A stretch of DNA of 64,000 nucleotides, taken from positions 992,001 through 1,056,000 of the forward strand of contig JAPNXP010000015.1 in assembly GCA_028753945.1 (NCBI GenBank), given 5' to 3'. Source of the DNA: Hexactinellida sp. DTS-2022 (lineage: Eukaryota; Porifera; Hexactinellida). The position numbers and the translations under genes were made by a program. Under the pieces are notes generated by a model. The model did not search any database. It worked only from the letters and a program-made list of their open reading frames with translations, and was not told the origin of the DNA. Below are positions 4,253 to 49,366 of this stretch, piece after piece; the stretch's first letter is position 1, and every line of letters begins with the position of its first letter.

Positions 4253-4404
4253 ATATGTGACGCCGTAGATGGTCCCCTTTATTAATATTGAATTATTTCT
4301 GACGCAGGGTTCTGTATATTTTCCGGGGAGGCGGAACCACGACGGTAAGCTAAGCAACCCGAACACTTTGTATAGGTTAAACTTTAACCTTCATTTGACT
4401 CCAC

Positions 4405-5595
4405 GGGGTCCAATGAGACCCCATAATTTTGGACCCCACTGGGTCCAATTCGCTACTATATTTTTGGGGTATATTCGGACCCCACTGGGTCCAATTCGCT
4501 ACTATATTTTGGGGTCTCTTCGGACCCCAATGGGTCTAAGTCGCTACTATATTTTGGGGTCTCTTCAGACCCCACTGGGTCTAAGTCGCTACTATATTTT
4601 GGGGTCTCTTCGGACCCCACTGGGTCTAAGTCGCTACTATATTTTGGGGTCTCTTCAGACCCCACTGGGTCCAATTCGCTACTATATTTTTGGGGTATAT
4701 TCGGACCCCACTGGGTCCAATTCGCTACTATATTTTTGGGGTATATTCGGACCCCACTGGGTCCAATTCGCTACTATATTTTGGGGTCTCTTCGGACCCC
4801 ACTGGGTCTAAGTCGCTACTATATTTTGGGGTCTCTTCAGACCCCACTGGGTCTAAGTCGCTACTATATTTTGGGGTCTCTTCAGACCCCACTGGGTCTA
4901 AGTCGCTACTATATTTTGGGGTCTCTTCAGACCCCACTGGGTCTAAGTCGCTACTATATTTTGGGGTCTCTTCGGACCCCACTGGGTCTAAGTCGCTACT
5001 ATATTTTGGGGTCTCTTCAGACCCCACTGGGTCCATTTCGCTACTATATTTTTGGGGTATATTCGGACCCCACTGGGTCCAATTCGCTACTATATTTTGG
5101 GGTCTCTTCGGACCCCACTGGGTCTAAGTCGCTACTATATTTTGGGGTCTCTTCAGACCCCACTGGGTCTAAGTCGCTACTATATTTTGGGGTCTCTTCA
5201 GACCCCACTGGGTCTAAGTCGCTACTATATTTTGGGGTCTCTTCAGACCCCACTGGGTCCAAGTAGCTACTATATTTTGGGGTCTCTTCAGACCCCACTG
5301 GGTCTAAGTCGCTACTATATTTTGGGGTCTCTTCAGACCCCACTGGATCTAAGTCGCTACTATATTTTGGGGTCTCTTCGGACCCCACTGGGTCTAAGTC
5401 GCTACTATATTTTGGGGTCTCTTCAGACCCCACTGGGTCTAAGTCGCTACTATATTTTGGGGTCTCTTCAGACCCCACTGGGTCCAAGTAGCTACTATAT
5501 TTTGGGGTCTCTTCAGACCCCACTGGGTCCAAGTAGCTACTATATTTTGGGGTCTCTTGGGACCCACTGGGTTCAAGTCGCTACTATATTTCTAG
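4405..5595 (+). repeat. 45-bp minisatellite, about 26 units
   Basis: Near-identical 45-bp units contain GGGGTCTCTTCAGACCCC, a GGGGTC/GACCCC inverted repeat, followed by ACTGGGTCTAAGTCGC and TACTATATTTT. A variant of 46-47 bp with GGGGTATATTCGG recurs near 4450-4500, 4690-4770 and 5050. Because the unit length is a multiple of three, several frames stay open on both strands; these are not genes. It is related to the array at 55,958-57,770. Confidence 0.97.
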
Positions 5596-6186: not shown

Positions 6187-6703
6187 TCTATACTATTAAA
6201 ACACAAGCCTGGGTGGGTGTGTGTATATATATATGTGTATATATTTGTTTGTATGTTACGAGTTGATTGAAGAAAGTGGACGGTTTCCAAATGAGATTTT
6301 TGGTATATAGTGGTAACTTTTGGCACCCGCCAACAAGTTGAGGTTTCCACTCAAAATTTCTCACACCTCGACAAGTTATGACGTCATTGTCACATTTCGA
6401 GAACACTGAAAATTCACTTAATCGCACATAATTCGCGCCCTTTAAGAGAGAAAAATCTGAAAATTTAATAGAACATGTACATTAATGATGCGGACACGTT
6501 GGTCGCACCAGATCACCAATATGCTTACTCATTATCGCATGATGACGTAATCACTAAATTTCACATTGTTATATTCTACTATTTTAGGCCTATTTACGCT
6601 TTATAATCAATGTTAGACGTGTATAAACCACACATCAACCGCGAAGCGGTTGGTGTGTGGTTGTGTTCTGCCGCGAAGCGACCTAGCAAGCGAAGCGCGC
6701 TAG
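6187..6703 (+). mobile_element. Non-autonomous Helitron with both ends
   Basis: The 5' end is TCTATACTATTAAAACAC, preceded by A. The 3' end is CGAAGCGCGCTAG, followed by T. A 5' TC, a 3' CTRR, insertion between A and T and absence of terminal inverted repeats are the Helitron signature. A short hairpin (AACCGC GAA GCGGTT) lies about 50 bp before the 3' end. There is no Rep/helicase gene. This 517-bp copy is the reference for reading the interrupted copy at 11,843-28,281. Confidence 0.85.
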
Positions 6704-11842: not shown

Positions 11843-12095
11843 CTAGCGCGCTTCGCTTGCTAGGTCGCTTCGCGGCAGAACACAACCACACACCAAGCGC
11901 TTCGCGGTTGATGTGTGGTTTATATACTCCTAATAATGATTATAAAGCGTAAATAGGCCCTAAATAGTCAAATTTAACAATATGAAATTTTAATGAATAC
12001 GTAACATACGATAATGAGTTAGCATATTGGCGATCTGGTGTGACAACCATGTCCGCATGATTAATGTCCATGTTCTATTAAATTTTCAGGTTTTT

Positions 12096-13043
12096 ACTGT
12101 GCCGACTATACTATAGTATAGTGGCCCAGTTCTAATCTTACTGCCTTGGTTAGTTATTATTACTGTGCCGACTATACTATAGTATAGTGGCCCAGTTCTA
12201 ATCATACTGCCTTGGTTATTACTGTGCCGACTATACTATAGTATAGTGGCCCAGTTCTAATCATACTGCCTTGGTTATTATTACTGTGCCGACTATACTA
12301 TAGTATAGTGGCCCAGTTCTAATCTTACTGCCTTGGTTATTACTGTGCCGACTATACTATAGTATAGTGGCCCAGTTCTAATCATACTGCCTTGGTTATT
12401 ATTACTGTGCCGACTATACTATAGTATAGTGGCCCAGTATTGGTCTTAGTGCTTTGGTTATTACTGTGCCGACTATACTATAGTATAGTGGCCCAGTTCT
12501 AATCTTACTGCCTTTAATAATATTTTGTACTGTGCCGACTATACTATAGTATAGTGGCCCAGTTCTAATCTTACTGCCTTTAATATTTTTACTGTGCCGA
12601 CTATACTATAGTATAGTGGCCCAGTATTGGAATCACTGCCTTTATTTTTACTGTGCCGACTATACTATAGTATAGTGGCCCAGTTATAATCTTACTGCCT
12701 TGGTTATTATTACTGTGCCGACTATACTATAGTATAGTGGCCCAGTTCTAATCTTACTGCCTTGGTTATTATTATTACTGTGCCGACTATACTATAGTAT
12801 AGTGGCCCAGTTCTAATCTTACTGCCTTGGTTATTATTATTATTATTATTATTATTACTGTGCCGACTATACTATAGTATAGTGGCCCAGTTCTAATCTT
12901 ACTGCCTTGGTGATTATTACTGTGCCGACTATACTATAGTATAGTGGCCCAGTATTGGTCTTAGTGCTTTGGTTATTATTATTATTACTGTGCCGACTAT
13001 ACTAAAGTATAGTGGCCCAGTATTGGAATCACTGCCTTTATTA
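12096..13043 (+). repeat. Array of a ~60-bp repeat with a 35-bp palindrome
   Basis: About 15 units each carry ACTGTGCCGACTATACTATA followed by GTATAGTGGCCCAGT, a near-perfect 35-bp palindrome whose core CTATACTATAGTATAG is exact. A spacer TCTAATCTTACTGCCTTGGTT or TTGGAATCACTGCC and a variable (TTA)n tract complete the unit. The palindrome is almost invariant while the spacer varies. Confidence 0.95.
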
Positions 13044-13055
13044 TTATTATTTTTT

Positions 13056-13898
13056 TTTTTTTTTCTCCGTAGACGGTGCCCTGGCCTGAGCTTTATAGTT
13101 GATGGGCTGAAACTTGGCATGTAGATGCGATGGGACCGTCTAATTTGCACCTGGGGTTACGATTTTTGATTAACAAATTTTTGACACATCTTTAACACCT
13201 TTCAAAATTTGTCTGGTCCATAACTCAAAATATGTTTTACTAAACCCCCAAATTTTATTTCACATTTGGATTCACCATAAAATTCTGCGTCTGATGGGAG
13301 AAGAGAACTTTTAATAAAGATTTTTATTTCTGCCACAAATGTGGTTTGAAATTTCTTTGTTTACTCACACTTCAATTTCAGTAAAACTGTGAAATCTAAT
13401 TCCATTTTTCAACTTGTAATAATTATATTGATTTAACTTGTTAAATCTTTCACTATTGTTTCAACTTGCGATAATTAAATTGATTCAACTAATAAATTCC
13501 AGCTGGCTTCTATTTAATTCTAGTATTACTATACAATGGATTAAATAAATTATAATAATATAAGGAATTTGTTGACTCAACTCAACCAACCGTGGATAAC
13601 ATTGCTAAAATAAATTCCTGATAATATATTTTATTATCAATACATAATGAATGAATGGCATTAAACTCTTGATGGTTTATGATAGAAACTAACTTCAAAT
13701 TTATCTACCGTTCCTTGTAACTCCGACCAATTAACAAATGGTTCTTCACACCTTGGGCGTTGATGACTGGGCGAAAAAAAATCCAAAATTGCACCCTGTG
13801 CTGACAGCATGCTCCTTTGGAGGCACTATCAATAACCAACCAATAAAATATAGTGCCACCAAAGGAGCATGCTGTCAGCACAGGGTGCAATTTTGGAT
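13056..13898 (+). repeat. Long unit 1 (type 1) with terminal hairpin 13,781-13,898
   Basis: The type 1 head starts TCTCCGTAGACGGTGCCCTG, runs through GCACCTGGGGTTACGATTTT and ends in the GGGCGTTGATGACTGGGCGA tail. The hairpin arms are perfectly complementary here, including changes unique to this copy (GCACCCTGTGCTGACAGCAT on the left, exact complement on the right). Confidence 0.9.
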
Positions 13899-13904
13899 TT
13901 TTTT

Positions 13905-14100
13905 TTATTACTGTGCCGACTATACTATAGTATAGTGGCCCAGTTCTAATCTCAGTGCCTTGGTTAGTTATTACTGTGCCGACTATACTATAGTATAGTG
14001 GCCCAGTATTAGAATCACTGCCTTTATTTATATTATTATTACTGTGCCGACTATACTATAGTATAGTGGCCCAGTATTGGAATCACTGCCTTTATTTATA
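13905..14100 (+). repeat. Three more ~60-bp palindromic units
   Basis: The palindrome is the same as in the 12,096-13,043 array, at 13,909, 13,973 and 14,041, directly after hairpin 1. Confidence 0.93.
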
Positions 14101-14109
14101 TTATTATTA

Positions 14110-15576
14110 TTTTTATTTTTTCTCCGTAGACGGTACCCTGGCTACACCTTTATACATTGAGGGCTGAAACTTGCCATGTAGATGCGAAGTGCCCTTCTAA
14201 TTTGCACCTGGGGTTACGATTTTTGATTACGAAATTTTGCACACATTTTTAACACCTTTCAAAATTTGTCTGGTCCATAACTCAAAATATGTTTACTAAA
14301 CCCCCAAATTTTATTTCATATTTGGATTCATCTTAAAATTCTGCGTCTGTTGGGAGAAGAAATCTTTCAATAAAGGGGTCAATTTCTGCCAAAAATGGGG
14401 GTTAAAATTTCTTTGTTTACTCACACTTCAATTTCAGTTAAGCGTTAAATCTAATTCTATTGTTTCAACTTGTAATAATTATATTGATTTAACTTGTTAA
14501 ATCCTACTCTAGTGATTCAACTTGCGATAATTATAATGATTTAACTTGTTAAATCCTACTCTAGTGATTCAACTTGCGATAATTATATTGATTTAACTCA
14601 TAAATTCCAGCTGGCTTCTATTTAATTCTAGCATTACTATACAATGGATTAAATTAAATTAATTTATATAAGGAATTTGTTGACTTTACTCAACTCACCG
14701 TGGATAACATTGCTAAAATAAATAACTAATAATTTAATTTATTATCAATAAGTAATGAATGGCATTAAACTAAAGATGGTTTATGATAGAACCGTTAACA
14801 TTTTACATTCCACAACAACGACAGATAAAGTGATTATATTTATTTCGCGAGAATATTCTTGCACAATTAATGTACTGACGTAATTTATTATAATAAATTC
14901 CTTTTGTATTTAACTTATAGACGGTTCCAATTGGATTATTGGGGTTATCGAGTGCGCTGAATTCAAATATGATAGTGAAATTCGATTGAAATTAATAATA
15001 AGTGCAAATAATTGAACTTTATTTATTTTGCCTTACATAATAATGATGTTAAATTATTATTTTATTAATTAAATATTTATACTAATTAGCTAAATTTCAT
15101 TAATCTCAGAGATGATACAAGATAGAAACAAACTTTCAATTTATCAATTGGTCCTTATGCCACGTACCACCTATACAAGTGAGTCTTGACACCTTGAGGT
15201 GATGATGACATCGTCAAAAAAATGTATTTTTACAATTTTGTGAATTCGATATTTAAAATGGGTTATTTGAAGTTGGGTGAAGACCCAACACTCACATAAA
15301 AAATGCTGAGTCATCAGCTATTATATTCTACTCAAACTTGAATATCTCTAAAATGAAGTGAACTAAATGGAAACTTGCGCCACTCTAAGGGTCGATGCCT
15401 TCTGTAACACCTTTTGATATATTTTAACACCTTCATAGTGATGATGACATGGCGAAAAAAAATCCAAAATTGCAGCTGTGCTGACAGCATGTCCCATTGG
15501 AGGCACTATCAATAAACCACCACCAAAATATAGTGCCACCAAAGGAACATGCGTCGGCACAGCTGCAATTTTGGAT
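14110..15576 (+). repeat. Long unit 2 with terminal hairpin 15,462-15,576
   Basis: A type 1 head (CTCCGTAGACGGTACCCTGG) passes into a tail shared with type 2 units (ATCAATTGGTCCTTATGCC, GGTCTTGACACCTTGAGG, the GTTGGGTGA..ACCCAACAC inverted repeat). The hybrid suggests recombination between subfamilies. Confidence 0.9.
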
Positions 15577-15589
15577 TTTTTTTTATTTT

Positions 15590-17009
15590 TTTTTCTCCGT
15601 AGACGGTACCCTGGCCACACCTTTATACATTGAGGGCTGAAACTTGCCATGTAGATGCGAAGTGCCCTTCTAATTTGCACCTGGGGTTACGATTTTTTAT
15701 TAGCAAATTTTGGACACATTTTTAACACCTTTCAAAATTTGTCTGGTCCATAACTAAAAAAATGTTTTACTAAACCCCCAATTTTTATTTCATATTTGGA
15801 TTCACCATAAAATTCTGCGTCTGATGGGAGAAGAAAACTTTCAATAAAGGGTTAAATTTCTGCCATAAATGGGGGTTGAAATTTCTTTGTTTAGTCACAC
15901 TTCAATTTCAGTAAAACTGTGAAATCTAATTCCATTGTTTCAACTTGTAATAATTATATTGATTTAACTTGTTGAATCCTACTCTAGTGATTCAACTTGC
16001 GATAATTATATTGATTCAACTTATAAATTCCAGCTGGCTTCTATTTAATTGTAGCATTACTATACAATGGATTAAATTAAATTAATTTATATAAGGAATT
16101 TGTTGACTTTACTCAACTCACCGTGGATAACATTGCTAAAATAAATAACTAATAATTTAATTTATTATCATTAAGTAATGAATGAATGGCATTAAACTAA
16201 AGATGGTTTATGATAGAACCGTTAAGATTTTACATTCCACAACAACGACAGATTAAGTGATTATATTTATTTCGGCGAGAATATTCTTTTTGCACAATTA
16301 ATGTACTGACGTAATTTATTATAATTAATTCCTTTTGTATTTAACTTATAGAATTTTCCAATTGGATTATTGGGGTTATCGAGTGCGCTGAATTCAAATA
16401 TGATAGTGAAATTCGATTTAAATTAATAATAAGTGCAAATAATTGAACTTTATTTATTTTGCTGTACATAATAATGGTGTTAAATTATTAATTTATTAAT
16501 TAAATATTTATACTAATTAGGTAAATTTCATTAATCTCAGAGATGATACAAGATAGAAACAAACTTTCAATTTATCAATTGGTCCTTATACCAGGTACCA
16601 CCTATACAAGTGGGTCTTGACACCTTGAGGTGATGATGACATCGTTAAAAAAATGTATTTTTACAATTTTGTGAATTAAATAATTCGCATGGGTTGGTTG
16701 GAGTTGGGTGAATACCCAACACGCACTTAAAAAATGCCGAGTCATCACAGATTATATTCTACTGAAACTTGAATATCTCTATAATGAAGTGAGCTAAATG
16801 GAAACTTCCACCACTCTAAGGGTCGTTGCATACGGAAACAACTTTCTGAAATAATTTAACACCTTCATTGTGATGATGACTAGGCGAAAAAAAATCCAAA
16901 ATTGCAGCTAGTGCCGACAGCATGTTCCTTTGGAGGCACTATCAATAAACCACCACCAAATATAGTGCCACCAAACGAACATGCGTCGGCACAGGCTGCA
17001 ATTTTGGAT
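15590..17009 (+). repeat. Long unit 3 with terminal hairpin 16,894-17,009
   Basis: Structure matches unit 2: type 1 head (CTCCGTAGACGGTACCCTGG), then the shared tail. The hairpin's left arm reads GCAGCTAGTGCC while the right reads GGCACAGGCTGC, so this copy is not fully complementary. Confidence 0.9.
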
Positions 17010-17026
17010 TTTTTATTATTATTATT

Positions 17027-18219
17027 ATTAGTCCGTATTCTCTCCACAGTACAGAGTTTAATTAACTAAGAGCCCAAATTTTCTTGATATGTGTCTCATG
17101 GGTTACAGATGTGCACCTGGGGTCACGATTTTTTATTACATTTTTTTGGACACATTTTTGCACCTGTTTAATATTGAAACAGGAACAATAAATAGTACCC
17201 GAAAATTAAATTTATATGCATTCGATAGAGAATTAAATTCTACACCTTTTCACAGTGCACGATTTTTCAAATTGTACTTAGTTTGTGCCACAATTGAGTT
17301 GCAAGTTTCCTTTGTTTACTAACACTTCAGTACAATTGAAAGTGTTAAATCTAATTCTATTGTTTCAACTCGTTATTATTATATTGATTCAACTTGTGAG
17401 ATCGAGTAGGCTTCTATTTTCCAATTGAAAACTAAGATTCTACATTCCATAACAACGACAGATTATGTGATTATATTTCCTTCTGCAAGAATACTCTTAC
17501 ACTGTTAATATACTGACGTAATTAATAATAATTAATTAAGTCAGTATATGACTTATATAGATGCTCCCAATTTGTTTATTAGGGGTTATCGAGTGTGTGG
17601 AATTGAAATTTGATAGCCAAATTAATTAATTAATTATTTATGACAAAATAATTAAACTTAATAATTGTAAGTTGACATTGAAATTAGTGTTAAATTATAA
17701 ATAATATTAATTATTATTTATACTAATTAATTAAATATCAGAAATCTCAGAAATCAAATAAGGTAGAAACAAACTTCCAATTTATCAATTGATCCTTGTG
17801 CCACGTAACACCTCTACAAATGGGTCTTGACACCTTGAGGTGATGATGACATCGTCAAAAAAATGTGTTTTTACAATTTTGTTAATTCGATATTTAAAAT
17901 GGGTTAGTTGATGTTGGGTGATGACCCAACACTCACATAAAAAATGCTGAGTCATCAGCTATTATATTCTACTCAAACTTGAATATCTCTAAAATTAAGT
18001 GAACTAAATGGAAACTTCCACCACTCTAAGGGTCGATGCCTTCTTTAAAACCCTTTTGAAATAATTTAACACCTTCATAGTGATGATGACATGGCGAAAA
18101 AAAAATCCAAAATTGCAGCTGTGCCGACAGCATGTTCCATTGGAGGCACTATCAATAAACCACCACCAAAATATAGTGCCACCAAAGGAACATGCGTCGG
18201 CACAGCTGCAATTTTGGAT
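17027..18219 (+). repeat. Long unit 4 (type 2) with terminal hairpin 18,105-18,219
   Basis: The type 2 head starts GTCCGTATTCTCTCCACAG and includes GTGTCTCATGGGTTACAGAT. A 77-codon open frame (17,089-17,322) recurs in several units but shows no sign of protein-level constraint. Confidence 0.9.
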
Positions 18220-18973
18220 TTTTATTATTAGTCCGTATTCTCTCCACAGAACAGAGTTTAATTAACTAAGAGCCCAAATTTTCTTGATATGTGTCTCATG
18301 GGTTACAGATGTGCACCTGGGGTCACGATTTTTGATTACAAATTTTTGGCTACATTTTTGCACCTGTTTATTATTAGAAAAAGAACAATAAATAGTGCGC
18401 GTATATTTAATTTATATGCATTCGATAGAGAATTAAATTCTACACCTTGTCACAGTGCACGAATTTTTAAATTGGGTGTCGTTTGTGCCACAATTGAGTT
18501 GGAAATTTCCTTTGTTTACTAACACTTCAATTCATTGAAAGTGTTAAATCTAATTCCATTGTTTCAACTTGTAATAATTATATTGATTCAACTTGTGAGA
18601 TCGAGTAGGCTTCTATTTTCCAATTTAAAAATAGATTATATATTTCATAACAACAACAGATTATGTGATTATATTTACTTCTGCGTGAATATTCTGCACA
18701 ATGGATACACTGACATAATTAATCGCTCTGTCTTCAACTTATAGAGACTGTTCCAATTAGATTATTGGGGTTATCGAGTGTGCGGAATTGTAATTTGATA
18801 CCCAAATTAATTAATTAATTATTTATGGCAAAATAATTAAACTTAATAATTGTAAGTTGACATTGAAATTGGTGTTAATTATTATTTATACTAATTAATT
18901 GAATATCAGAAATCTCAGAGATCATAGAAGATAGAAACAAACTTTCAATTTATCAATTGGTCCTTATGCCAGG

Positions 18974-19936
18974 CAGAGACGGATTAAGGGTATATTGGGC
19001 CCCGGGCGGACATCAACCACGGGCTTTTAAGAGTTTCTTTGAGGACATCCCTGAATATAATCCTACAGGGTCCTTACAAATTTTTGTACAATCTTCACTA
19101 CTTTTTGCATTCCAACGATTTCCTAAGTCTTCTGATATATCGCCCCACAACCCAATGGTATTCACAAATTTGGTTTTCTTTCTGAGTTAAAAGCGTGTTG
19201 CTCTTCTACAACCTTTGGAACTTGATACTCGGACTTGATAAAACTAGAGTCCCATACTGAAAGTAATTCGTATTAATTAGATACAAATGAATCGCCAAGA
19301 GGTACAAAAGAAGATGTTGAAGTAGAAAGCTCATAGTCTTCGGCTGTAAATTCTTGGGATTGTGATTATAGGTTAGAGAATGTGTCTAGTTTAGGAAGTT
19401 TAGACGTTTCTTGTTTAGGTGACATTCTTTTCTTTTAGTTGCCCCCGACTTGTGAATAGGATGCATTACTGTGAAGTGGAGAATATATCTTATTATAGGA
19501 AACTAACGCGCCATGAAATTAACGAGAAGGAAATTAACGCTCCATTAAATTAACGCGAAATAGCAGGAAAATAAGGTCATGGAAATTAACGCTCCATGAA
19601 ATTATCATGAAGGAAATTAACGCGATTTGGAGAAATTCGCGTTAATTTCATGGCGCGTTAATTTCCTATAAAAAGGTATTTAGACTCGAAAAATTCAATG
19701 TAAAGTAGATCAGGACTAGGCTTGTTACTTAAGGTGTGCTGTCTATTGATTGTATCATTGTTATTGCTTCACTGTTCAAACTCAATTAAACTATGATTAT
19801 CATGTTATTGCTTCACTACTCAGACATTATAATGCAACACATTTCTCAATACAAATATTACAGCTTTGTATTGGGCCCCCTTTAGGCTCGGGCCCCGGGC
19901 GACCGCCCCATCCGCTCCCCCCTTAATCCACCACTG
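18974..19936. mobile_element. hAT-type element, 963 bp, inserted in long unit 5
   Basis: The ends CAGAGACGGATTAAGGG and CCCCTTAATCCACCACTG are inverted repeats, continued inside by GGGCCCCGGGCG blocks. ATGCCAGG flanks both sides (18,966-18,973 and 19,937-19,944), and sister units show the empty site with a single ATGCCAGG-like sequence. No transposase is evident. A smaller palindromic element lies inside at 19,494-19,672. Confidence 0.92.
19494..19672. mobile_element. Short palindromic MITE nested in the hAT element
   Basis: The ends TATAGGAAACTAACGCGCCA and TGGCGCGTTAATTTCCTATA are inverted, with internal tandem AAATTAACGC.CCATG motifs. One end of the same family occurs at 9525-9560. Confidence 0.75.
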
Positions 19937-20359
19937 ATGCCAGGTACCACCTATACAAGTGGGTCTTGACACCTTAAGGTGATGATGACATCGTTAAAAA
20001 AATGTATTTTTACAATTTTTTAATTTCGACATTTAAAATGGGTTAGTTGGTGTTGGGTGATGACCCAACACTCACATAAAAAATGCTGACTCATCACTTA
20101 TTATATTCTACTGAAACTTGAATATCTTTGAAACGAAGTGAGCAAAATGGAAACTTCCACGACTCTAAGGGTCGTTGCCTTCTGAAACACCTTTCTGAAA
20201 TAATTTAACACCTTCATAGTGATGATGACTTGGCGAAAAAAAAATCCAAAATTGCAGCCTGTGCCGATAGCATGTTCCTTTGGAGGCACTATCAATAAAC
20301 CACCAACAAAATATAGTGCCACCAAAGGAACATGCGTCGGCACAGGCTGCAATTTTGGA

Positions 20360-20399
<40 letters not shown>

Positions 20400-20400
<1 letters not shown>

Positions 20401-21588
20401 GTCCGTAGCCTCTCCCCAGAACAGAGTTTAATTAACTAAGAACTTAAATTTTCAGGACAGGTGTCTCATGGGTTACAGATGTGCACCTGGGGTCACGATT
20501 TTTTATCACATTTTTTTGGACACATTTTTGCACCTGTTTAATATTGAAACAGGAACAATAAATAGTACGCGAAAATTAAATTTATATGCATTCGATAGAG
20601 AATTAAATTCTACACCTTTTCACAGTGCACGAATTTTCAAATTGTACTTAGTTTGTGCCACAATTGAATTGCAAGTTTCCTTTGTTTACTAACACTTCAG
20701 TTCAATTGAAAGTGTTGAATCTAATTCTATTGTTTCAACTCGTTATTATTATATTGATTCAACTTGTGAGATCGAGTAGGCTTCTATTATATAATTGAAA
20801 ACTAAGATTCTACATTCCATGACAACGACATATTATGTGATTATATTTATTTCTGCTTAGAATATTCTTGCACAATGGATACATGACGAAGTTAATTCTA
20901 ATTAATTCGCTCTGTGTTTAACTAATAGAGATGATTCCGAATAGATTAGTGGGTTATCGAATGCGCTGAATTCTAATATGATAGTGAAATTCAATTTAGT
21001 TTAATAACTATTGCAAATAATTGAACTTAATTTATTTTGATGTACATAATTTTGGTGTTAAATTATTAATAGATTAATTAAATATATATACTAATTATCT
21101 AAATTTCATTAATCTCAGAGACTATAGAAGATAGAAACAAACTTTCAATTTATCAATTGGTCCTTATGCCACGTACCACCTCTACAAATGGATCTTGACA
21201 CCTTGAGGTGTTTATGACATCGTAAAAAAAATGTGTTTTTACAATTTTGTTAATTCGACATTTAAAATGTGTTAGTTGGTGTTGGGTGATGACCCAACAC
21301 TCACATAAAGATGCTGAGTCATCAGCTATTATATTCTACTCAAACTTGAATATCTTTGAAATGAAGTAAACTAAAACGAAACTTCCACCACTCTAAGGGT
21401 CGATGCCTTCTGAAACACCTTTTTGAAGAAAATTAACACCATCATAGTGATGATGAAATTGCGGAAAAAAAAATCCAAAAATGCAGCTGTTCCGAACAGC
21501 ATGTTCCATTGTAGGCACTATCAATAAGCCACCACCAAAATATAGTGCCACCAAAGGAACATGCGTCGGCACAGCTGCAATTTTGGAT
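20400..21588 (+). repeat. Long unit 6 (type 2) with terminal hairpin 21,473-21,588
   Basis: A (TTA)n tract precedes the head GTCCGTAGCCTCTCCCCAG. The tail matches units 4-8. The left hairpin arm carries private changes not mirrored on the right. Confidence 0.9.
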
Positions 21589-21597
21589 TTTATTATT

Positions 21598-22787
21598 AGT
21601 CCGTATTCTCTCCACAGTACAGAGTTTAATTAACTAAGAGCCCAAATTTTCTTGATATGTGTCTCATGGGTTACAGATGTGCACCTGGGGTCACGATTTT
21701 TTATTACATTTTTTTGGACACATTTTTGCACCTGTTTAATATTGGAAAAAGAAGATTAAATAGTGCGCGAATATTTAATTTATATGCATTCGATAGAGAA
21801 TTAAATTCTACACCTTTTCACAGTGCACGAATTTTTAAATTGGGTTTCGTTTGTGCCACAATTGAGTTGCAAGTTTCCTTTGTTTACTAACACTTCAGTT
21901 CAATTGAAAGTGTTAAATCTAATTCTATTGTTTCAATTCGCTATTATTATATTGATTCAACTTGTGAGATCGAGTAGGCTTCTATTTTCCATTTGAAAAA
22001 AAAGATTATATATTTCATAACAACGACAGATTATGTGATTATATTTACTTCTGCGAGAATATTATTGCACTGTTAATATACTGACGTAATTAATTATAAT
22101 TAATTCAGTCAGTACATGACTTATATAGATTCTTCCAATTTGTTTATTAGGGGTTATCGAGAGTGCGGAATTGAAATTTGATAACCAAATTAATTAATTA
22201 ATTATTTATGACAAAATAATTTAACTTAATAATTGCAAGTTGACATTGAAATTGGTGTTATATTATAAATAATATTAATAATTATTTATACTAATTAAGT
22301 AAATATCAGAAATCTCAGAAATCAAATAAGGTAGAAACAAACTTCCAATTTTTCAATTGATCCTTGTGCCACGTAACACCTCTACAAATGGGTCTTGACA
22401 CCTTGAGGTGATGATGACATCTTCAAAAAAATGTGTTTTTACAATTTTGTTAATTCGATATTTAAAATGGGTTAGTTGATGTTGGGTGATGACCCAACAC
22501 TCACTTAAAAAATGCTGAGTCATCAGCTATTATATTCTACTCAAACTTGAATATCTCTAAAATTAAGTGAACTAAATGGAAACTTCCGCCACTCTAAGGG
22601 TCGATGTCTTCTGTAACACCTTTTGAAATATTTTAACACCTTCATGGTGATGATGACATGGCGGAAAAAAAAATCCAAAATTGCAGCTGTGCTGACAGCA
22701 TGTCCCATTGGAGGCACTATCAATAAACCACCACCAATATATAGTGCCACCAAAGGAACATGCGTCGGCACAGCTGCAATTTTGGAT
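21598..22787 (+). repeat. Long unit 7 (type 2) with terminal hairpin 22,673-22,787
   Basis: Very close to unit 4, including the GTCCGTATTCTCTCCACAG head. The left hairpin arm has CTGACAGCATGTCCCATTGG while the right arm is the standard form. Confidence 0.9.
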
Positions 22788-22814
22788 TTTTATTATTATT
22801 ATTATTATTATTAT

Positions 22815-23997
22815 TAGTCCGTAGCCTCTCCCCAGAACAGAGTTTAATTAACTAAGAACTTAAATTTTCAGGACAGGTGTCTCATGGGTTACAGATGTGC
22901 ACCTGGGGTCACGATTTTTTATCACATTTTTTTGGACACATTTTTGCACCTGTTTAATATTGAAACAGGAACAATAAATAGTACGCGAAAATTAAATTTA
23001 TATGCATTCGATAGAGAATTTAATTCTACACCTTTTCACAGTGCACGAATTTTCAAATTGTACTTAGTTTGTGCCACAATTGAATTGCAAGTTTCCTTTG
23101 TTTACTAACACTTCAGTTCAATTGAAAGTGTTAAATCTAATTCTATTGTTTCAACTCGTTATTATTATATTGATTCAACTTGTGAGATCGAGTAGGCTTC
23201 TATTATATATTTGAAAACTAAGATTCTACATTCAATAACAACGACATATTATGTGATTATATTTCTTTCTGCAAGAATACTCTTGCACTGTAAATATACT
23301 GACGTAATTAATTATAATTAATTCAGTCAGTATATGACATATATAGATGCTCCCAATTTTTTTATTAGGGGTTATTGAGTGTGCGGAATTTAAATTTTAT
23401 AACCAAATTAATTAATTTATTATTTATGACAAATTAATTTAACTTAATAATTGTAAGTTGAAATTGAAATTGGTGTTAAATTAATAATAATTATTTATAC
23501 TAATTTATTAAATATCTTAAATCTCAGAGATCATAGAAGATAGAAACAAACTTTCAATTTATCAATTGGTCCTTATGGCACGTGCCACCTATGCAAGTGG
23601 GTCTTGATACCTTGAGGTGATGATGACATCTTTAAAAAAATGTGTTTTACAATTTTGTTAATTCGATATTTAAAATGGGTTAGTTGATGTTGGGTGATGA
23701 CCCAACACTCACATAAAAAATGCTGAGTCATCTGCTATTATATTCTGCTCAAACTTAAATATCTCTAAAATGAAGTGAACTCAATGGAAACTTCCACCTC
23801 TCTAAGGGTCGATGGCTTCTGAAACACCTTTCTGAAATAAATTAACACCTTCATAGTGATGATGAAATGGCGAAAAGAAAATCCAAAATTGCAGCTTGTG
23901 CCAACAGCATGTTCCTTTGGAGGCACTATCAATAAACCTCCACCAAAATATAGTGCCACCTAAGGAACATGCGTCGGCACAGGCTGCAATTTTGGAT
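22815..23997 (+). repeat. Long unit 8 (type 2) with terminal hairpin 23,881-23,997
   Basis: Very close to unit 6, with the GTCCGTAGCCTCTCCCCAG head. Units 4/7 and 6/8 look like pairs, which suggests duplication of a two-unit block. Confidence 0.9.
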
Positions 23998-24014
23998 TTT
24001 TTATTATTATTATT

Positions 24015-24132
24015 ACTGTGCCGACTATACTATGGTATAGTGGCCCAGTTCTAATCTTACTGCCTTGGTTATTATTATCACTGTGCCGACTATACTATAG
24101 TATAGTGGCCCAGTTCTAATCTTACTGCCTTG

Positions 24133-24167
<35 letters not shown>

Positions 24168-24470
24168 TGTGCCGACTATACTATAGTATAGTGGCCCAGT
24201 ATTGGAATCACTGCCTTTATTATTATTACTGTGCCGACTATACTATAGTATAATGGCCCAGTATTAGAATCACTGCCTTTATTACTGTGCCGACTATACT
24301 ATAGTATAGTGGCCCAGTATTAGAATCACTGCCTTTATTTATATTATTATTACTGTGCCGACTATACTATAGTATAGTGGCCCAGTATTGGAATCACTGC
24401 CTTTATTACTGTGCCGACTATACTATAGTATAGTGGCCCAGTATTGGAATCACTGCCTTTATTATTATTA
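24015..24470 (+). repeat. Block of seven ~60-bp palindromic units
   Basis: Palindromes of the same family, with one or two single-base changes in the core (for example CTATGGTATAG near 24,030). The block is followed, as at 13,043, by a type 1 long unit. Confidence 0.93.
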
Positions 24471-24483
24471 TTTTTATTATTTT

Positions 24484-25313
24484 TTCTCCGTAGACGGTGC
24501 CCTGGCCTGAGCTTTATAGTTGATGGGCTGAAACTTGGCATGTAGGTGCGATGGGACCGTCTAATTTGCACCTGGGGTTACGATTTTTGATTAACAAATT
24601 TTTGACACATCTTTAACACCTTTCAAAATTTGTCTGGTCCATAACACAAAATATGTTTTACTAAACCCCCAAATTTTATTTCACATTTGGATTCACCATA
24701 AAATTCTGCGTCTGATGGGAGAAGAAAACCTTCTATAAAGAGTTTTATTTCTGCCATAAATGGGGGTTGAAATTTCTTTGTTTACTCACACTTCAGTTTC
24801 AGTATAACTGTTAAATCTAATTCCATTGTTTCAACTTGTAATAATTATATTGATTTAACTTGTTAAATCTTACTCTATTGATTCAACTTGCGATAATTAA
24901 ATTGATTTAACTTATAAATTGCAGCTGGCTTCTATTTAATTTACCATACAATGGATTAAATAAAATAATATAATATAAGGAATTTGTTGACTTAATTCAA
25001 CTCAACCGTGGATAACAATGCTAAGATAAATAACTAATAATATAATTTATTATCAATACATAATGAATGAATGGCATCAAACTCAAGATGGTTTAAGATA
25101 GAAACAAACTTCAAATTTATCTACCGTTCCTTGTGACTCGGACCAATTAACAAATGCTTCTTCACACCTTGGGCGTTGATGACTTGGCGAAAAAAAATCC
25201 AAAATTGCAGCCTGCGCCGACAGCATGTTCCTTTGGAGGCACAATCAATAAACAACCAACAAAATATAGTGCCACCAAAGGAACATGCGTCGGCACAGGG
25301 TGCAATTTTGGAT
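24484..25313 (+). repeat. Long unit 9 (type 1) with terminal hairpin 25,197-25,313
   Basis: Nearly the same as unit 1, including the short type 1 tail. A 60-mer block followed by a type 1 unit occurs twice, so this pair may be one larger duplicated module. Confidence 0.9.
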
Positions 25314-25341
25314 TTTTTTATTTTTTTTATTATTATTATTA

Positions 25342-26535
25342 GTCCGTAGCCTCTCTACTGACCAGAGTTTTATTAACTAAGAACCCAAAATTTCAGGATA
25401 TGTGTCTCATGGGTTACAGATGTGCACCTGGGGTCACGATTTTTTATTACATTTCTTTGGACACATTTTTGCACCTGTTTAATATTTAAACACGAACAAT
25501 AAATAGTACCCGAATATTCAATTTATATGCATTCGATAGAGAATTAAATTCTACACCTTTTCACAGTGCACGAATTTTTAAATTGGGTTTCGTTAGTGCC
25601 ACAATGGAGTTGCAAATTTCCTTTGTTTACTAACACTTCAGGAAAATTGAAAGTGTTAAATCTAATTCTATTGTTTCAACTTGTGATTATTATATTGATT
25701 CAACTTGTGAGATTGAGTAGGCTTCTATTTTCCAATAGAAAAATAAGATTATATATTTCATAACAACGACAGATTATGTGATTATATTTCCATCTGCAAG
25801 AATACTCTTGCACTATTAATAGACTGACGTAATTAATTATATAATTAATTCAGTCCGTATTTTGACTTATATATAGATGCTTCCAATTTGTTTATTAGGG
25901 GTTATCGAGTGTGCGAAATTGAAATATGGTAGCCAAATTAACAATAATTACTATTTATGACAAATAACTAATCTTAATAAATTTAAGTTGACATTGAAAT
26001 TGGTGTTAAATTATAAATAATATTAATAATTATTTATACTAATTAATTAAATATCATAAATCTCAGAGATGATACAAGATAGAAACAAACTTCCAACTTA
26101 TCAATTGATCCTGATGTGACGCAACACCTCTACAAATGGGTCCTGACACCTTGAGGTGATGATGACATCGTCAAAAAAATGTGTTTTTACAATTTTGTGA
26201 ATTCTATAATTCGAATGGGTTGGTTGGTGTTGGGTGATCAGCCAACACGCGCATAAAAAATGCTTACTCATCACTAATTATATTCTAATGAAACTTGAAT
26301 ATCTTTGAAATGAAGTGAGCTAAAACGAAACTTCCAACTCATTAAGGGTCGTTGCCTTCCGAAACACCTTTCTGAAATAATTTAACACCTTCATTGTGAG
26401 GAAAACATGGAGAAAAAAATCCAAAATTGCAGCCTCTGCCGACAGCATGTTCCTTTGGAGGCACTATCAATAAACTACCATCAAAATATAGTGCCACCGA
26501 AGGAACATGCGTCGGCACAGGCTGCAATTTTGGAT
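25342..26535 (+). repeat. Long unit 10 (type 2) with terminal hairpin 26,419-26,535
   Basis: Head GTCCGTAGCCTCTCTACTG. The repeat-borne open frame seen in other units is interrupted here, which argues against it being a gene. Confidence 0.9.
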
Positions 26536-26547
26536 TTTTTATTATTA

Positions 26548-27733
26548 TTTTTGGTCCGTAGATCGTCCACAGAACAGAGTTTTATAAACTAGAACTGAAA
26601 TTTTTAGGACAGGTGTCTTATGGGTTACAGATGTGCGCCTGGGGTCACAATTTTTTATTACATTCCTTTGGACACATTTTCACACCTGTTTAATGTTACA
26701 ACAGGTACAATAAATAGAGCCCGAAAATTAAAATTATAGGCATTCGATGGAGAATTACATTCTACACCTTGTCACAGTACACGAATTTTCAAATTGTGCT
26801 TAGTTTGTGCCACAATTGAGTTGCAAGTTTCCTTTGTTTACTAACACTTCAGTACAATTGAAAGTGTTAAATCTAATTCTATTGTTTCAACTTGTGATAA
26901 TTATATTGATTCAACTTGTGAGATCGAGTAGGCTTCTATTTTCCAATTGAAAACTAGGATTCTACATTCCATAACAACGACAGATTATGTGATTATATTT
27001 CCTTCTGCAAGAATACTCTTGCACTGTTAATATACTGACGTAATTAATTATACTTAATTCAGTCAGTATAGGACTTATATAGATGCTCCCAATTTGTTTA
27101 TTAGGGGTTATCGAGTGTGCGGATTTGAAATTTGATAGCCAAATTAATCAATTTATTATTTATGACAAAATAATTGAACTTAATAAATATATGTTGACAT
27201 TGAAATTGGTGTTAAATTATTAATAATTATTTATTCTAATTAATTAAACATCATAAATCTCAGAGATGATACAAGATAGAGACAAACTTCCAATTTATCA
27301 ATTGGTCCTTATGGCACGTGCCACCTATACAAGTGGGTCTTGACACCTTGAGGTGATGAAGACATCGATAAAAAAATGTTTTTTTACAATTTTGTTAATT
27401 CGATATTTAAAATGGGTTAGTTGATGTTGGGTGATGACCCAACACTCACATAAAAAATGCTGAGTCATCAGCTATTATATTCTACTCATACTTGAATATC
27501 TCTAAAATGAAGTGATCTAAATGGAAACTTCCACCACTCTAAGGGTCGATGCCTTCTGTAACACCTTTTTGAAATAATTTAACACCTTCATAGTGATGAT
27601 GACAATGCGAAAAAAAATCCAAAATTGCAGCCAGTGCCGATAGCATGTTACTTTGGAGGCACTATCAATAAACCACAATCAAAATATAGTGCCACCAAAG
27701 GAACATGCGTCTGCACAGGCTGCAATTTTGGAT
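26548..27733 (+). repeat. Long unit 11 (type 2) with terminal hairpin 27,617-27,733
   Basis: Last unit before the array meets the Helitron 5' half. Head GGTCCGTAGATCGTCCACAG. Confidence 0.9.
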
Positions 27734-27750
27734 TTTATCTCTTATTAGAG

Positions 27751-28027
27751 CAGTAGTTCTTAACCTGGGGGAAATTTCCCCGGGGGGAAATTTCGGGGAT
27801 ATTAGGGGGAAATCAATTTAGACAAAATTAATAATAATAATAAAACAAAAATAAAATAATACCTCCTAAAATTGATCCACTGGTGGCCAAGAAGCAGTTA
27901 TCACCAAATAGCTAATAATTTGTAATTTCAAGGCTACATTGTTTATTTTACTACAAATGAAGGGGGAAATCGGGTAGAGTGAACAGGCCAAAAGGGGAAA
28001 TGACATAAAAAAGGTTAAGAACCACTG
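27751..28027. mobile_element. hAT-type MITE with perfect 8-bp target duplication
   Basis: The ends CAGTAGTTCTTAACCTGGGG and AAAGGTTAAGAACCACTG are inverted, of the widespread CAGTGGTTCTTAACCT hAT type. TATTAGAG lies on both sides (27,743-27,750, 28,028-28,035). Removing it joins the last hairpin to the Helitron 5' half. Confidence 0.93.
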
Positions 28028-28406
28028 TATTAGAGGGAAGGAATTATGTGCGATTAAGTGAAATTTCAGGGTTCACGAAAATGTGACTTGTCGAGGTGTG
28101 AGAAATTTTGAGTAGAAACCTCAACTTGTTGGCGGGTGCCAAAAGTTGCCCATATATGCCAAAAATCACATTTGGAAACCGTCCACTTTCTTCAATCAAC
28201 TCGTAACATACAAACAAATATATATATATAGTATTATATACACATATACACATATACAGGTTTGTGTTTTAATAGTATAGATATCAGATTTGGGAGGAAC
28301 TCTTAAAACTAAAGCATTTCTTATGGACGCGATATTATTACTCAATTTTGCCTCGTAATTGCTATAATTACGGATATTATGTCTTTTTGAACATGATAAC
28401 ACTTGA

Positions 28407-32689: not shown

Positions 32690-32945
32690 AATGGGTCATG
32701 GGTCATGGGTCACAGAACCGTGACCCATTACCTATCTGACCCATCGAGGCATCGACCCATGGTCCACTCTGGTCTGTATCAGCTTGTACCAGTCTGCATC
32801 AACCTATATCGCCTTGTATCAGTCTGTATCACCTTGTATCAGCCTGTATCAACCTGTACCAGTTTGTATTACCTTGTATCAGCCTGTATCAACCTGTACC
32901 AGTTTGTATTACCTTGTATCAGTCTGTATTAGCTCCTACAAATCG
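32690..32945 (+). repeat. GACCCAT-rich stretch and CTTGTATCAG decamer array (left arm)
   Basis: TGGGTCATGGGTCA and GACCCAT motifs run from 32,690 to 32,765, followed to 32,940 by about 17 degenerate 10-bp units of the form TGTATCAGCC. The mirrored array is at 34,345-34,810. Confidence 0.85.
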
Positions 32946-34344: not shown

Positions 34345-34810
34345 GTAATGCGATTTGTAGTAGCTAATATAGGCTGATACAGACTGTGACAAGCTAATAC
34401 AGACTAATACAGCTATACAGGTTGATACAGACTGATACAAGGTGATACAGACTAATACAAGGTGATACAAACTTGTATAAACTGATACAGGTTGATACAG
34501 ACTGATACAAGGTGATACATACTGATACAAACTGGTACAGGTTCATACAGTTGATATAAGGTGATAGAGACTGTTACAAGGTGATAGAAACTGTTACAGG
34601 CTAATACAGACTGTTACAGGCTAATACAGACTGATACAAACTGATACAGGTTGATACAGACTGATACAAGGTGAACAGAGTACAGACTGAACAGGTTGAT
34701 ACAAGGTGATACAGACTGATGCAGGCTGATACAAACTGGTACAGACTGATACAGGTTGATACAGACTGAACAGGTTGATACAGAATGATACAAGGTGAAT
34801 TAGGTGATAC
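34345..34810 (-). repeat. Decamer array, inverted (right arm)
   Basis: About 45 degenerate 10-bp units (GACTGATACAAGGTGATACA) are the reverse complement of the arrays at 31,440-31,485 and 32,768-32,940. Confidence 0.9.
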
Positions 34811-35459: not shown

Positions 35460-38400
35460 TAGTTAATTAATTAAGACATGTCATGAACGCCTCAAGGCTC
35501 AACACCGATTTATCAAGTTGTTACGGGACAAAGGAACGATTGATGAATTTGAAGTATATTACTGTGCCGACTATGCTATACGTATATACGTAGTATTGTG
35601 GCCCAGTTCTAATCTAAGTTCTTTGGTTACCGAATATTATGTCCGTATCGTCTCCACAGACCAGAGTTATAATTACTAAGAACTCAAAAAAATTATGACA
35701 GGTGTCTCATGGGTTACAGATGTGCACCTGGGGTCACGATATTTGATTACATTTTTTTGGACACATTTTTGCACCTGTTTATGTTAGAAAAAGAACAGTA
35801 AATAGTGCGCGAATATTCAATTTATATTCATTCGATAGAGAATTTAATTCTACACCCATTCACAGTGCACGAATTTTCAAATTGGGCTTCGTTTGTGACA
35901 CAATTGAGTTGCAAATTTCTATTGTTTACAAACACTTCAGTTCAATTGAAAGTGTTAAATCTAATTCTATTGTTTCAACTTGTGATTATTATATTGATTC
36001 AACTTGTGAGATCGAGTAGGCTTCTATTTTCTATTTGAGAACTAATATTTTACATTCCATAACAACGACAGATTATGTGATTAATTTACTTCTGCGAGAA
36101 TAAGCTTGCACAATGGATACACTGGCATATTTAATTCTAATTAATTCGCTCTGTGTTTAACTTATAGAGACGGTTCCAATTATATTATTGGGGTTATCGA
36201 GTGCGCTGAATTCAAATATTATAATGAAATTCAATTTAGATTAATAATTATTGCAAATAATTGAACTTAATTTATTTTGCTGTACATAATAATGGTGTTA
36301 AATAATTAATAAATTAATTAAATATTTATACTAATTACCTAAATTTCATTAATCCCAGAAATCATATAAGATAGAAACAAACTTCCAATTAATCAATTGA
36401 TCCTTATACCACGTAACACCTCTACAAATGGGTCATGGCACCTTGAGGTGATGATGACATCGTAAAAAAATGTGTTTTACAATTTTGTGAAGCATAAAAT
36501 TTAAATGGGGTTGTAGTGTTGGGTTATTACCCAACACGCACATCAAAAATGCAGAGTCATCACCTATCAAATTCTACTGAAACTCGAATATCTCTCAAAT
36601 GAAGTGAGCTAAATGGAAACTTCCACCACTATAAGGGTTGTTGCCTTCTGAAACACCTTTCTGAAATAATTTAACACCTTCATAGTAATGATGACAATTG
36701 GGAAAAAATCCCAAATTGCAGCGGATTTTTTCCCAAAAAAAAATAACAGCATTTTCCTTGGAGGCACTATCAATTACCCAACCAGTACCCACCAAAAGAT
36801 AGTGCCACCAAAGGGAAATCCGTCGGCACAGCTGCAATTTTGGATTTTTTATTATTAGTCCGTAGCTTGTCCACAGAACAGAGTTTTATTAACTAAGAAC
36901 TGAAATTTTCAGGACAAGTGTCTCATGGATTATAGATGTGCACCTGGGGTAACGATTTTTGATTAACAAATTTTGTACACATTTTTAACACCTTTCAAAA
37001 TTTGTCTGGTCCATGACTCAAAAAATGTTATACTAAACGCTGGAATTTTATTTACTATTGGATTCACTATAAATTCTGCGTCTGATGTGATGAGGCACAT
37101 TTTTATAATGGGAATATTGATGTAATAATTTAATGGCGAAAAAAATCCTTTAATGGCGAAAAAAATCCAAAATTGCAGCTGTGCCGACAGCATGTTCCAT
37201 TGCAGGCACTATCAATAAACCACCAACAAAATATAATGATACCAATGGAACATGCGTCGGCACAGCTGCAATTTTGTTTTTACTGTGCCGACTATACTAT
37301 AGTATAGTGGCCCAGTATTGGTCTTAGTGCTTTGGTTATTAATATTGGTCCGTAGCCTCTCTACTGAACAGAGTTTTACTAACTAAGAGCCCAAATATTC
37401 AGGATATATGTCTCATGGGTTACAGATGTGCACCTGGGGTCACGATTTTTTATTACATTTTTTCACGATTTTTTATTACATTTTTTTAAAATTGCAGACT
37501 GTGCCGACAGCATGTTCCTTTGGAGGCACTATCAATAAACAAACAACAAAATATAGTGCCACCAAAGGAACATGCGTCGGCACAGTCTGCAATTTTGGAT
37601 TTTATTCTTCCGTAGCTCATCCACTGAACAGAGTTTAATTAACTAAGAACCCAAAATTTCAGGATATGTGTCTCGTGGGTTACAGATGTGCACCTGGGGT
37701 CACGATTTTTGATTACATTTTTTTGGACACATTTTTACACCTGTTTAATGTTGGAAAAATAACAATAAATGGTGCCCCAATATTCTATTTATATGCATTC
37801 GATAGAGAATTAAATTCTACACCTTGTCACAGTGCACGAATTTTTAAATTGGGTGTCGTTTGTGCCACAATTGAGTTGGAAATTTCCTTTGTTTACTAAC
37901 ACTTCAATTCATTGAAAGTGTTAAATCTAATTCCATTGTTTCAACTTGTAATAATTATATTGATTCAACTTGTGAGATCGAGTAGGCTTCTATTTTCTAA
38001 TTGAAACCTAAGATTTTACATTCCACAACAACGACAGATTAAGTGATTATATTTATTTCTGCGAGAATATTCTTGCACAATGGATACATGACATATTGAA
38101 TTCTAATTAATTCGCTCTGTGTTTAACTTATAGATACAGTTCCAATTAGATTATTGGGGTTATCGAGTGCGCTGAATTCAACTATGATAGTGAAATTAAA
38201 TTAAATTAATAATAATTGCAAATAAATTAATTGAACTTCATTTATTTGCTGTACATAATAATGGTGTTATATTATTAATAAATCAATTAAATATTTATAC
38301 AAATTACCTAAATTTCATTTATCTCAGAAATCAAATAAGATAGAACCAAACTTCCAATTTATCAATTGATCCTTATGCCACATAACACCTCTACAAATGG

Positions 38401-39600: not shown

Positions 39601-39671
39601 TACTACAAACAATCAAGTTCTAAATGCAGTAAAAAATTAAATAAGGATAGCTATATGTAGTTTACCTACAC

Positions 39672-49364: not shown

Positions 49365-49366
49365 TA

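What the first reader, a model, noticed from the sequence alone, without database searches (positions are those of the whole stretch)
11843..28281. A 16-kb long-period tandem array sits at one point inside a Helitron
The two halves of a Helitron family known from a 517-bp complete copy (6187-6703) lie at the outer edges of the array in the right order and strand. The 3' terminus CTAG/T is at 11,843 and the 5' terminus A/TC at 28,281. The halves break at the same internal position (AGAGAAAAATC|TGAAAATTT) with almost nothing lost. Helitron-borne tandem repeats are known in Drosophila (DINE-1 type) and molluscs. Here eleven ~1.2-kb units with large hairpins plus 60-bp arrays would make one 16.4-kb element, so a rolling-circle element may be spreading or amplifying a macrosatellite.
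Basis: partly seen in the sequence, partly recalled or inferred. Interest (0 to 1): 0.8.

Follow-up and report, generated by a model that had tools for sequence, protein, structure and literature searches.

The report
Helentron tandem array nested in Helitron
The 16-kb repeat array is not part of the small jumping element it splits; it looks like a second kind of rolling-circle jumping DNA that landed inside the first, and related arrays elsewhere in this genome flank the enzyme gene that probably moves them.

Summary
The anatomy is confirmed: two halves of a 517-bp Helitron flank a 15.6-kb array of 11 hairpin-ended units plus 60-bp repeats, broken inside one A5/T5 run. The interpretation changes: the array is not that Helitron's cargo. 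The hairpin-arm 17-mer has 7,934 exact hits genome-wide, and no Helitron half lies in 20 fetched array stretches. Eight of 11 inspected edges elsewhere end at the window's own two end sequences in unrelated DNA. Three sites with a known empty form show insertion into A/T runs without target duplication. These are Helentron/HINE hallmarks. At five loci array units flank a gene module on both sides, on one strand; a Rep hit is listed in four, and one fully scanned frame has Rep, PIF1 helicase and AP-endonuclease domains. B units within an array are no more alike than between arrays (89.2 vs 89.4%). Best reading: a Helentron family lying head-to-tail and moving as multi-unit blocks inserted into a Helitron. 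A second, probably a third, Helitron was hit at the same T run. New variant of a known kind; no autonomous element was read end to end.

The parts
11843..12095 (-). 3' half of the target Helitron (CTAG end at 11843), up to the T5 run 12091-12095
12096..13056 (+). 5' edge of the inserted element: block of 15 copies of the 60-bp repeat (r60), first one starting A-CTGTGCCGAC (5' subterminal repeat) with an 18-bp palindrome
13064..13905 (+). A unit (836 bp) ending in a near-perfect long hairpin
13905..14109 (+). three r60 copies
14121..17009 (+). two A/B chimeric units (A 1-624 joined to B ~416-1194)
17017..23997 (+). five B units (~1.2 kb), each ending in a hairpin followed by a T/TTA tract; the second is split by a hAT-type insertion
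18974..19936 (.). nested hAT-type element, 8-bp direct repeats ATGCCAGG on both sides
24004..24476 (+). seven r60 copies
24485..27733 (+). A unit and two B units; the last hairpin (about 27611-27736) is the 3' end of the element, ending GGATTTT
27751..28027 (.). hAT-type MITE inserted in the Helitron 5' half next to the junction, 8-bp repeats TATTAGAG at 27743-27750 and 28028-28035
27737..28281 (-). 5' half of the target Helitron (TC end at 28281), split by the hAT-type element; BLAST match 28030-28281
6187..6703 (+). uninterrupted 517-bp copy of the same Helitron family (a paralogous empty site)

Best explanation
The 15.6-kb array is its own transposon insertion: a non-autonomous, multi-unit member of a Helentron-type rolling-circle family that inserted into the T5 run of an older Helitron. 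Shown: recurring ends (r60 start at one edge, hairpin plus T tract at the other), insertion into A/T runs without target duplication at three sites, CTGTGCCGAC/GTCGGCACAG subterminal repeats, and a Rep/helicase/AP-endonuclease gene module embedded in the same kind of array. Inferred: the Rep protein nicks at an r60-type 5' end and replication runs until it stops at one of many hairpins. Because nearly every unit carries its own hairpin terminator, stretches of one to many units are mobilised, giving insertions from about 2.2 kb (C2) to about 16 kb (window). Head-to-tail arrays would arise by read-through or circle concatenation and by re-insertion into the T tracts at unit boundaries; which dominates is not shown.
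For: No Helitron halves in 20 of 20 fetched stretches, chosen from the best B-unit matches. Same ends at 8 of 11 hand-picked outer edges (4 r60, 4 hairpin) plus both window edges, in unrelated flanks. Known empty forms: Helitron family vs the window; Helitron vs C2; B unit vs the nested inverted element at L037:1563-6848. Subterminal repeat within 2 mismatches in 246 of 249 hairpin arms (both arms counted), 14-15 nt before the T tract. Hairpin 3' ends are followed by a new A/B unit start (86) or r60 (22) in 108 of 119 oriented cases. Coding module: spacer 91% identical between C12 and C5 and joined to the array at the same point within about 20 bp; array within 0.6 kb upstream, same strand, at 8 (plus 1 partial) of 15 non-self spacer loci and within 0.9 kb downstream at 8 (plus 1 partial) of 12 non-self 3'-region loci; both sides at C1, C2, C11 (two loci) and C12. 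C1:7543700-7557200, held in sequence, shows array - gene - array on one strand. Pfam: Helitron_like_N, PIF1, Exo_endo_phos. B units: within-array 89.2%, between-array 89.4%, nearest neighbour in the same array 5 of 63 (shuffled mean 5.7%). Blocks of 3.7-4.9 kb at 94.8-96.2% shared between contigs.
Against: No complete autonomous element was read from terminus to terminus, so that the coding module uses exactly these r60/hairpin ends is inferred from linkage. At C1 the gene's 3' region runs into the next unit without a hairpin of its own. Three of 11 other edges are not canonical: two truncated units and one running into the coding module. Six of 15 spacer loci and three of 12 3'-region loci show no adjacent array in the listing. 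At C11:1.98 Mb no Rep hit is among those listed. The 32 A units do show a local signal: nearest neighbour in the same array for 6 of 32 (19%; shuffled mean 6%, maximum 25%), although mean identity is 90.2% within and 90.7% between. Block ends cluster at hairpin/r60 boundaries (40-50% vs 7% random), but length-variable TTA tracts there can break alignments for trivial reasons. OTU is weak in Pfam (16.1 bits, cut-off 23.3).
Confidence: 0.84

Rival explanations
1. One reading: one 16.4-kb Helitron carries and amplifies the macrosatellite between its own TC and CTAG ends.
For: The halves are in order and orientation; a second Helitron copy (C2) with a ~2.2-kb insertion of the same ends, and a third right junction (C8), sit at the same internal point.
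Against: 0 of 20 other array stretches have Helitron halves; arrays have their own ends elsewhere; the same kind of element also sits in a B unit's A run (L037); window and C2 Helitron halves are only 87% alike and group apart.
Confidence: 0.05
2. Ordinary macrosatellite: local tandem amplification by unequal exchange, with dispersal by extrachromosomal circles integrating at T-rich microhomology; the Rep gene is a bystander transposon that jumped into arrays.
For: T/TTA tracts at unit boundaries offer microhomology; six of 15 spacer loci show no adjacent array; A units have a mild excess of nearest neighbours in the same array (6 of 32).
Against: No local homogenisation of 63 B units; precise r60 and hairpin edges; the coding module begins inside a unit leader at a shared point and, in the C1 sequence, is followed by a fresh unit start on the same strand, which is not how a later T-run insertion would look.
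Confidence: 0.08
3. The units are retroposons: in reverse orientation many end in an A or (TAA)n tail, as non-LTR retrotransposon derivatives do.
For: TTA tracts lie between units and r60 repeats.
Against: No target duplication at three sites with known empty forms; no reverse-transcriptase domain among the Pfam hits of the two module frames scanned (1,697 and 290 aa; a third, 339-aa frame was not scanned).
Confidence: 0.02

Closest known systems
Helentrons and HINEs (DINE-1 type; Thomas et al. 2014, PMC4067079; passages and section 6 seen)
   Same: T-rich target, no target modification, T strings at the edges, subterminal inverted repeats near the 5' end, palindrome near the 3' end, autonomous partner with Rep/helicase/AP-endonuclease, OTU-type domain in some.
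   Different: Here copies lie head-to-tail in arrays of 0.84-1.4 kb units with ~120-nt hairpins (5-10 bp palindromes are given for the mite HINEs), the coding copy is itself flanked by units on both sides, and the 5' end is a repeated 60-bp module.
Cg_HINE of Pacific oyster (PMC7492417; abstract and passages seen)
   Same: Satellite-like arrays dispersed by non-autonomous Helentrons into oligo-T sites without target duplication.
   Different: Oyster repeats are short arrays, mostly 140-180-bp monomers, between two fixed end modules, and the authors could not relate autonomous elements to them; here units are whole hairpin-ended elements and a coding module lies in the arrays.
Tandem Helitrons (plant centromeres, as cited in PMC7492417 and PMC5148889; a three-copy fungal case in PMC5148889; passages seen)
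   Same: Head-to-tail copies attributed to rolling-circle replication, circles or repeated insertion.
   Different: Those inner copies are described as often 3'-truncated; here most inner units keep the 3' hairpin, and arrays mix several unit types at many places.

Membership tests
Helentron/HINE | Inserts in T-rich DNA (T|T) without target duplication | tested here: met
   Three sites with known empty form: Helitron at C7, Helitron at C2, B unit in L037
Helentron/HINE | Subterminal inverted repeats | tested here: met
   CTGTGCCGAC one or two nt inside the 5' T tract; GTCGGCACAG within 2 mismatches 14-15 nt before the 3' T tract in 246 of 249 arms
Helentron/HINE | Palindrome near the 3' end | tested here: met
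   Two hairpins folded: -46.1 and -65.4 kcal/mol, z -14.0 and -17.8; larger than the palindromes in PMC4067079
Helentron/HINE | Partner with Rep and helicase plus AP endonuclease at the C-terminal side | tested here: met
   1,697-aa frame at C1: Helitron_like_N 53-197, PIF1 712-931, Exo_endo_phos 1236-1419
Helentron/HINE | OTU cysteine protease (carried by some) | tested here: inconclusive
   Pfam OTU 16.1 bits, below the 23.3 cut-off; PDB sequence hits: best E 2.9e-6 to a chain labelled RNA-dependent RNA polymerase (a viral OTU domain by recall), then OTU domain-containing protein 1 at 8.5e-5
Helentron/HINE | Autonomous and non-autonomous copies share both termini | tested here: inconclusive
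   Shared leader and flanking units on both sides; termini of a whole autonomous element not read
Helentron/HINE | Circular or single-strand rolling-circle intermediate | not testable with these tools
   needs DNA from the animal
Canonical Helitron (for the array) | 5' TC, 3' CTRR, insertion between A and T | tested here: not met
   Array edges are T-tract/ACTGTGCC and GGAT/T-tract inside T runs
Canonical Helitron (for the 517-bp target) | 5' TC, 3' CTAG with inverted repeat near the 3' end, A|T insertion | tested here: met
   6187 TC, 6703 CTAG, flanks A and T; self-inverted match at element positions 440-476; 40 further near-complete copies
Locally amplified satellite | Units of one array more alike than units of different arrays | tested here: not met
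   B: 89.2 vs 89.4%, nearest neighbour in same array 5/63; A: 90.2 vs 90.7%, but nearest neighbour 6/32, about three times the shuffled mean

The most novel reading that the evidence does not exclude
A satellite that is itself the transposon: because nearly every unit carries its own 3' terminator and r60 blocks supply 5' starts, the transposase can mobilise any run of units, including its own gene as one unit among many. The array would be a modular multi-terminator element in which transposon and macrosatellite are the same object, and several per cent of the genome (rough estimate 6.7 Mb of 112 Mb) would be built and reshuffled by transposition, not by unequal exchange.
Probability: 0.4. 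Interest if true: 0.68.

Novelty: new variant of a known kind. Interest (0 to 1): 0.52.

Why it matters
How satellite-like arrays get dispersed, and whether rolling-circle transposons make or merely carry them, is an open question; PMC7492417 (passages) reports that autonomous elements could not be related to the oyster HINE arrays. Here arrays, empty sites and a gene module with many long open frames (20 loci with stop-free frames of 1,652-1,709 aa among the rows listed) lie in one assembled genome, so the read-through, circle and re-insertion models can be tested directly by junction sequencing and comparison of individuals.

Tried and rejected
Rejected: Helitron-borne cargo (no Helitron halves in 20 other array stretches). 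Disfavoured: local satellite amplification (A units keep a mild local signal). Rejected: retroposon tails as the explanation of TTA tracts. Considered: the 45-bp minisatellite at 4432-5591 as Helitron cargo; it abuts an old Helitron copy at 5593, but no Helitron 5' part was found in 4001-4440. Considered: naming the animal Xenoturbella bocki because of 18 sequences and ~112 Mb; the published assembly has ~111 Mbp, 18 large scaffolds holding 72 Mbp, longest 8.76 Mb and 43% GC (passages of PMC11521371), whereas this genome's contig C1 is 17.6 Mb and the window is 36% GC, so the organism is left unidentified. C14:2723993 (left junction, one mismatch) shares only 22 bp with the Helitron and is not counted. 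(right-junction pattern with up to 3 mismatches) was too loose to be useful: 305 hits, only the window without a mismatch. Literature: searches for Helentron with tandem repeat, Helitron with macrosatellite, Helitron tandem arrays with five other words, DINE-TR1, centromeric Helitron, and Helentron with OTU and array listed no paper that I recognised as describing hairpin-ended Helentron arrays with the coding copy inside; only open-licence papers are held, and beyond the five papers named here I saw listings only.
Full report
OBSERVATION. The 517-bp Helitron copy at 6187-6703 matches 12095-11843 (3' half) and 28281-28030 (5' half), both on the minus strand. The termini are TC and CTAG. Of 15 loci holding a Helitron copy (fetched; one is the window's own 6187 copy), 12 read AAAAATCTGAA at the break and 7 read AGAGATAAAAATCTGAAAATTT exactly. 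In the window, the 5' half stops after AGAGATAAAA and the 3' half resumes at AAAAACCTGAAAATTT, so the array sits inside the A5/T5 run and nothing beyond A/T is duplicated. The stretch that looks lost beside the 5' half is a hAT-type insertion (27751-28027) with an 8-bp direct repeat TATTAGAG. A second hAT-type element with ATGCCAGG repeats lies at 18974-19936. Between the edges are 11 hairpins, in 2 A units, 2 A/B chimeras and 7 B units, and 25 copies of a 60-bp repeat, r60.

THE ARRAY IS NOT HELITRON CARGO. A B unit used as query gives 313 matches with only the 40 best of 3,870 candidates scored. The 17-mer TGCAATTTTGGATTTTT, which occurs in both hairpin arms, has 3,945 plus 3,989 exact hits and none for the reversed control. 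Scaling by array bases per 17-mer in the sequence held (189,317 bases, 223 hits) gives about 6.7 Mb, or 6% of 112 Mb; this is rough, because the sample was chosen for strong B matches and long arrays, and lone hairpins are over-weighted. In 20 fetched array stretches (16 places) there was no Helitron half. I printed 11 outer edges picked by hand from that table (a twelfth printed point was internal): four begin with r60 preceded by an A/T tract, four end with the hairpin and a T tract, two are truncated units and one runs into coding sequence. The window adds one edge of each canonical kind.

TARGET SITES. Three filled sites have a known empty form. First, the window Helitron. Second, a Helitron on C2, where the left junction lies at 4198802-4198825 and the right one at 4196587-4196626, so the insertion is about 2.2 kb; the Helitron 3' half was read in L048, and the right side was seen only as a pattern match running into the Helitron 5' part. 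Third, an inverted array inside a B unit at L037:1563-6848, inserted into the A run of CACTTAAAAAATGC. None shows a duplication beyond A/T. A right junction of the same type on C8 is a probable further Helitron case whose left side I did not find. The window and C2 Helitron 3' halves are 87% identical, while the window half is 93-95% identical to seven other copies and groups with them (clade support 0.94). Those seven were fetched with the window half as query, and the position of the C2 half itself is weakly supported. Independent hits of one T5 site in an abundant Helitron family (2,643 first-look candidates) are the simpler reading.

TERMINAL ANATOMY. Two hairpins fold at -46.1 and -65.4 kcal/mol, with z -14.0 and -17.8. 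A 10-nt repeat, CTGTGCCGAC, starts r60, and its inverse lies 14-15 nt before the T tract in 246 of 249 hairpin arms with up to two mismatches (both arms are counted, so these are not 249 independent ends). Of 119 hairpin 3' ends that could be oriented, 86 are followed by a new A/B unit start, 22 by r60 and 11 by something else; reading those 11, one is an r60 and two are unit starts that the pattern missed. These features match those given for Helentrons and HINEs in PMC4067079 (passages and section 6 seen): T-rich target, no site modification, T strings at the edges, subterminal repeats and a 3' palindrome.

THE GENE MODULE. In one, at about 104 bits, 20 listed loci have stop-free frames of 1,652-1,709 aa, and several members lie within about 4-10 kb of arrays on the same strand. 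L045 (C12) and L026 (C5) share a 91% identical spacer that leaves the array at the same point within about 20 bp, inside the unit leader. With the last 300 bases of array plus spacer as query, 8 of 15 non-self spacer loci have array within 0.6 kb upstream on the same strand, one partially, six not. With the 3' region plus array as query, 8 of 12 non-self loci have array within 0.9 kb downstream, one partially, three not. Both sides are present at C1, C2, C11 (1.35 and 1.98 Mb) and C12; a Rep hit lies between them in the list at all but C11:1.98 Mb. The C1 locus was read over 13.5 kb: array, spacer, two short frames (one with DUF6570), a 1,697-aa frame with Helitron_like_N, PIF1 and AP-endonuclease, about 1 kb of 3' region, then array again. 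At C12 the frames are broken. The C-terminal tail resembles OTU proteases (Pfam 16.1 bits, below cut-off; PDB best E 2.9e-6 to a chain labelled RNA-dependent RNA polymerase, a viral OTU domain by recall, and 8.5e-5 to OTUD1). A, B and the coding module share the leader up to about GGCTTCTATTT and diverge after it, which suggests that A and B are internal-deletion derivatives (inference from reading).

HOW ARRAYS MOVE. Sixty-three full B units compared pairwise are 89.2% alike within arrays and 89.4% between arrays; nearest neighbours lie in the same array for 5 of 63 (7.9%; shuffled mean 5.7%, maximum 19%). The 32 A units are 90.2% and 90.7% alike, but 6 of 32 nearest neighbours lie in the same array (19%; shuffled mean 6%, maximum 25%), so some local duplication is likely among them. 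Against the 89% background, blocks of 4.9, 4.1 and 3.7 kb are shared between different contigs at 94.8, 95.0 and 96.2%. Ends of shared blocks fall within 30 bp of a hairpin end or r60 start in 40-50% of cases versus 7% at random, but variable TTA tracts at those points confound this. I infer that insertions carry runs of units, starting at an r60 and ending at one of several hairpins. Hairpin bypass as a cause of variable Helitron content is in print (PMC6431247 passages), as are circles and tandem copies (PMC5148889 passages).

VERDICT. This is a Helentron-type multi-unit insertion in a Helitron: a new variant of Helentron-dispersed repeats. What is unusual is that whole hairpin-ended elements form the array and that the enzyme gene sits inside the same kind of array. 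Not shown: the termini of a complete autonomous copy, present-day activity, and the organism's name.

Noticed in passing
window 4432-5591 and 55952-57763: Two arrays of ~45-bp repeats that look related (both contain GACCCCACT and GTCGC); the first abuts an old, 74% identical Helitron copy at its internal position 122 (5593).
   Followed up: partly
L045 about 1570-1610 and the matching part of C1 (L047): The spacer upstream of the Rep frames encodes a 2A-like motif, GGVELNPGP, present in both loci; its role in a Helentron is unexplained.
   Followed up: partly
C11:9014277, 9022806 and 9032402: Three spacer copies with identical scores about 8.5-9.6 kb apart on one strand: possibly a recent tandem triplication of the autonomous module.
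   Followed up: no
window 35591-42528, 47728-50089 and 52208-55472: Further degenerate pieces of the same A, B and r60 units in both orientations, so the window holds several older insertions.
   Followed up: no
genome-wide: A second, better-matching group of Helitron_like_N proteins (~220 bits, frames up to 1,930 aa) exists; it may belong to the partner of the 517-bp Helitron.
   Followed up: no
window 32774-32934, 34374-34792 and 44404-44849: Other tandem arrays with periods of about 10 bp (first two) and 9/18 bp (third).
   Followed up: no
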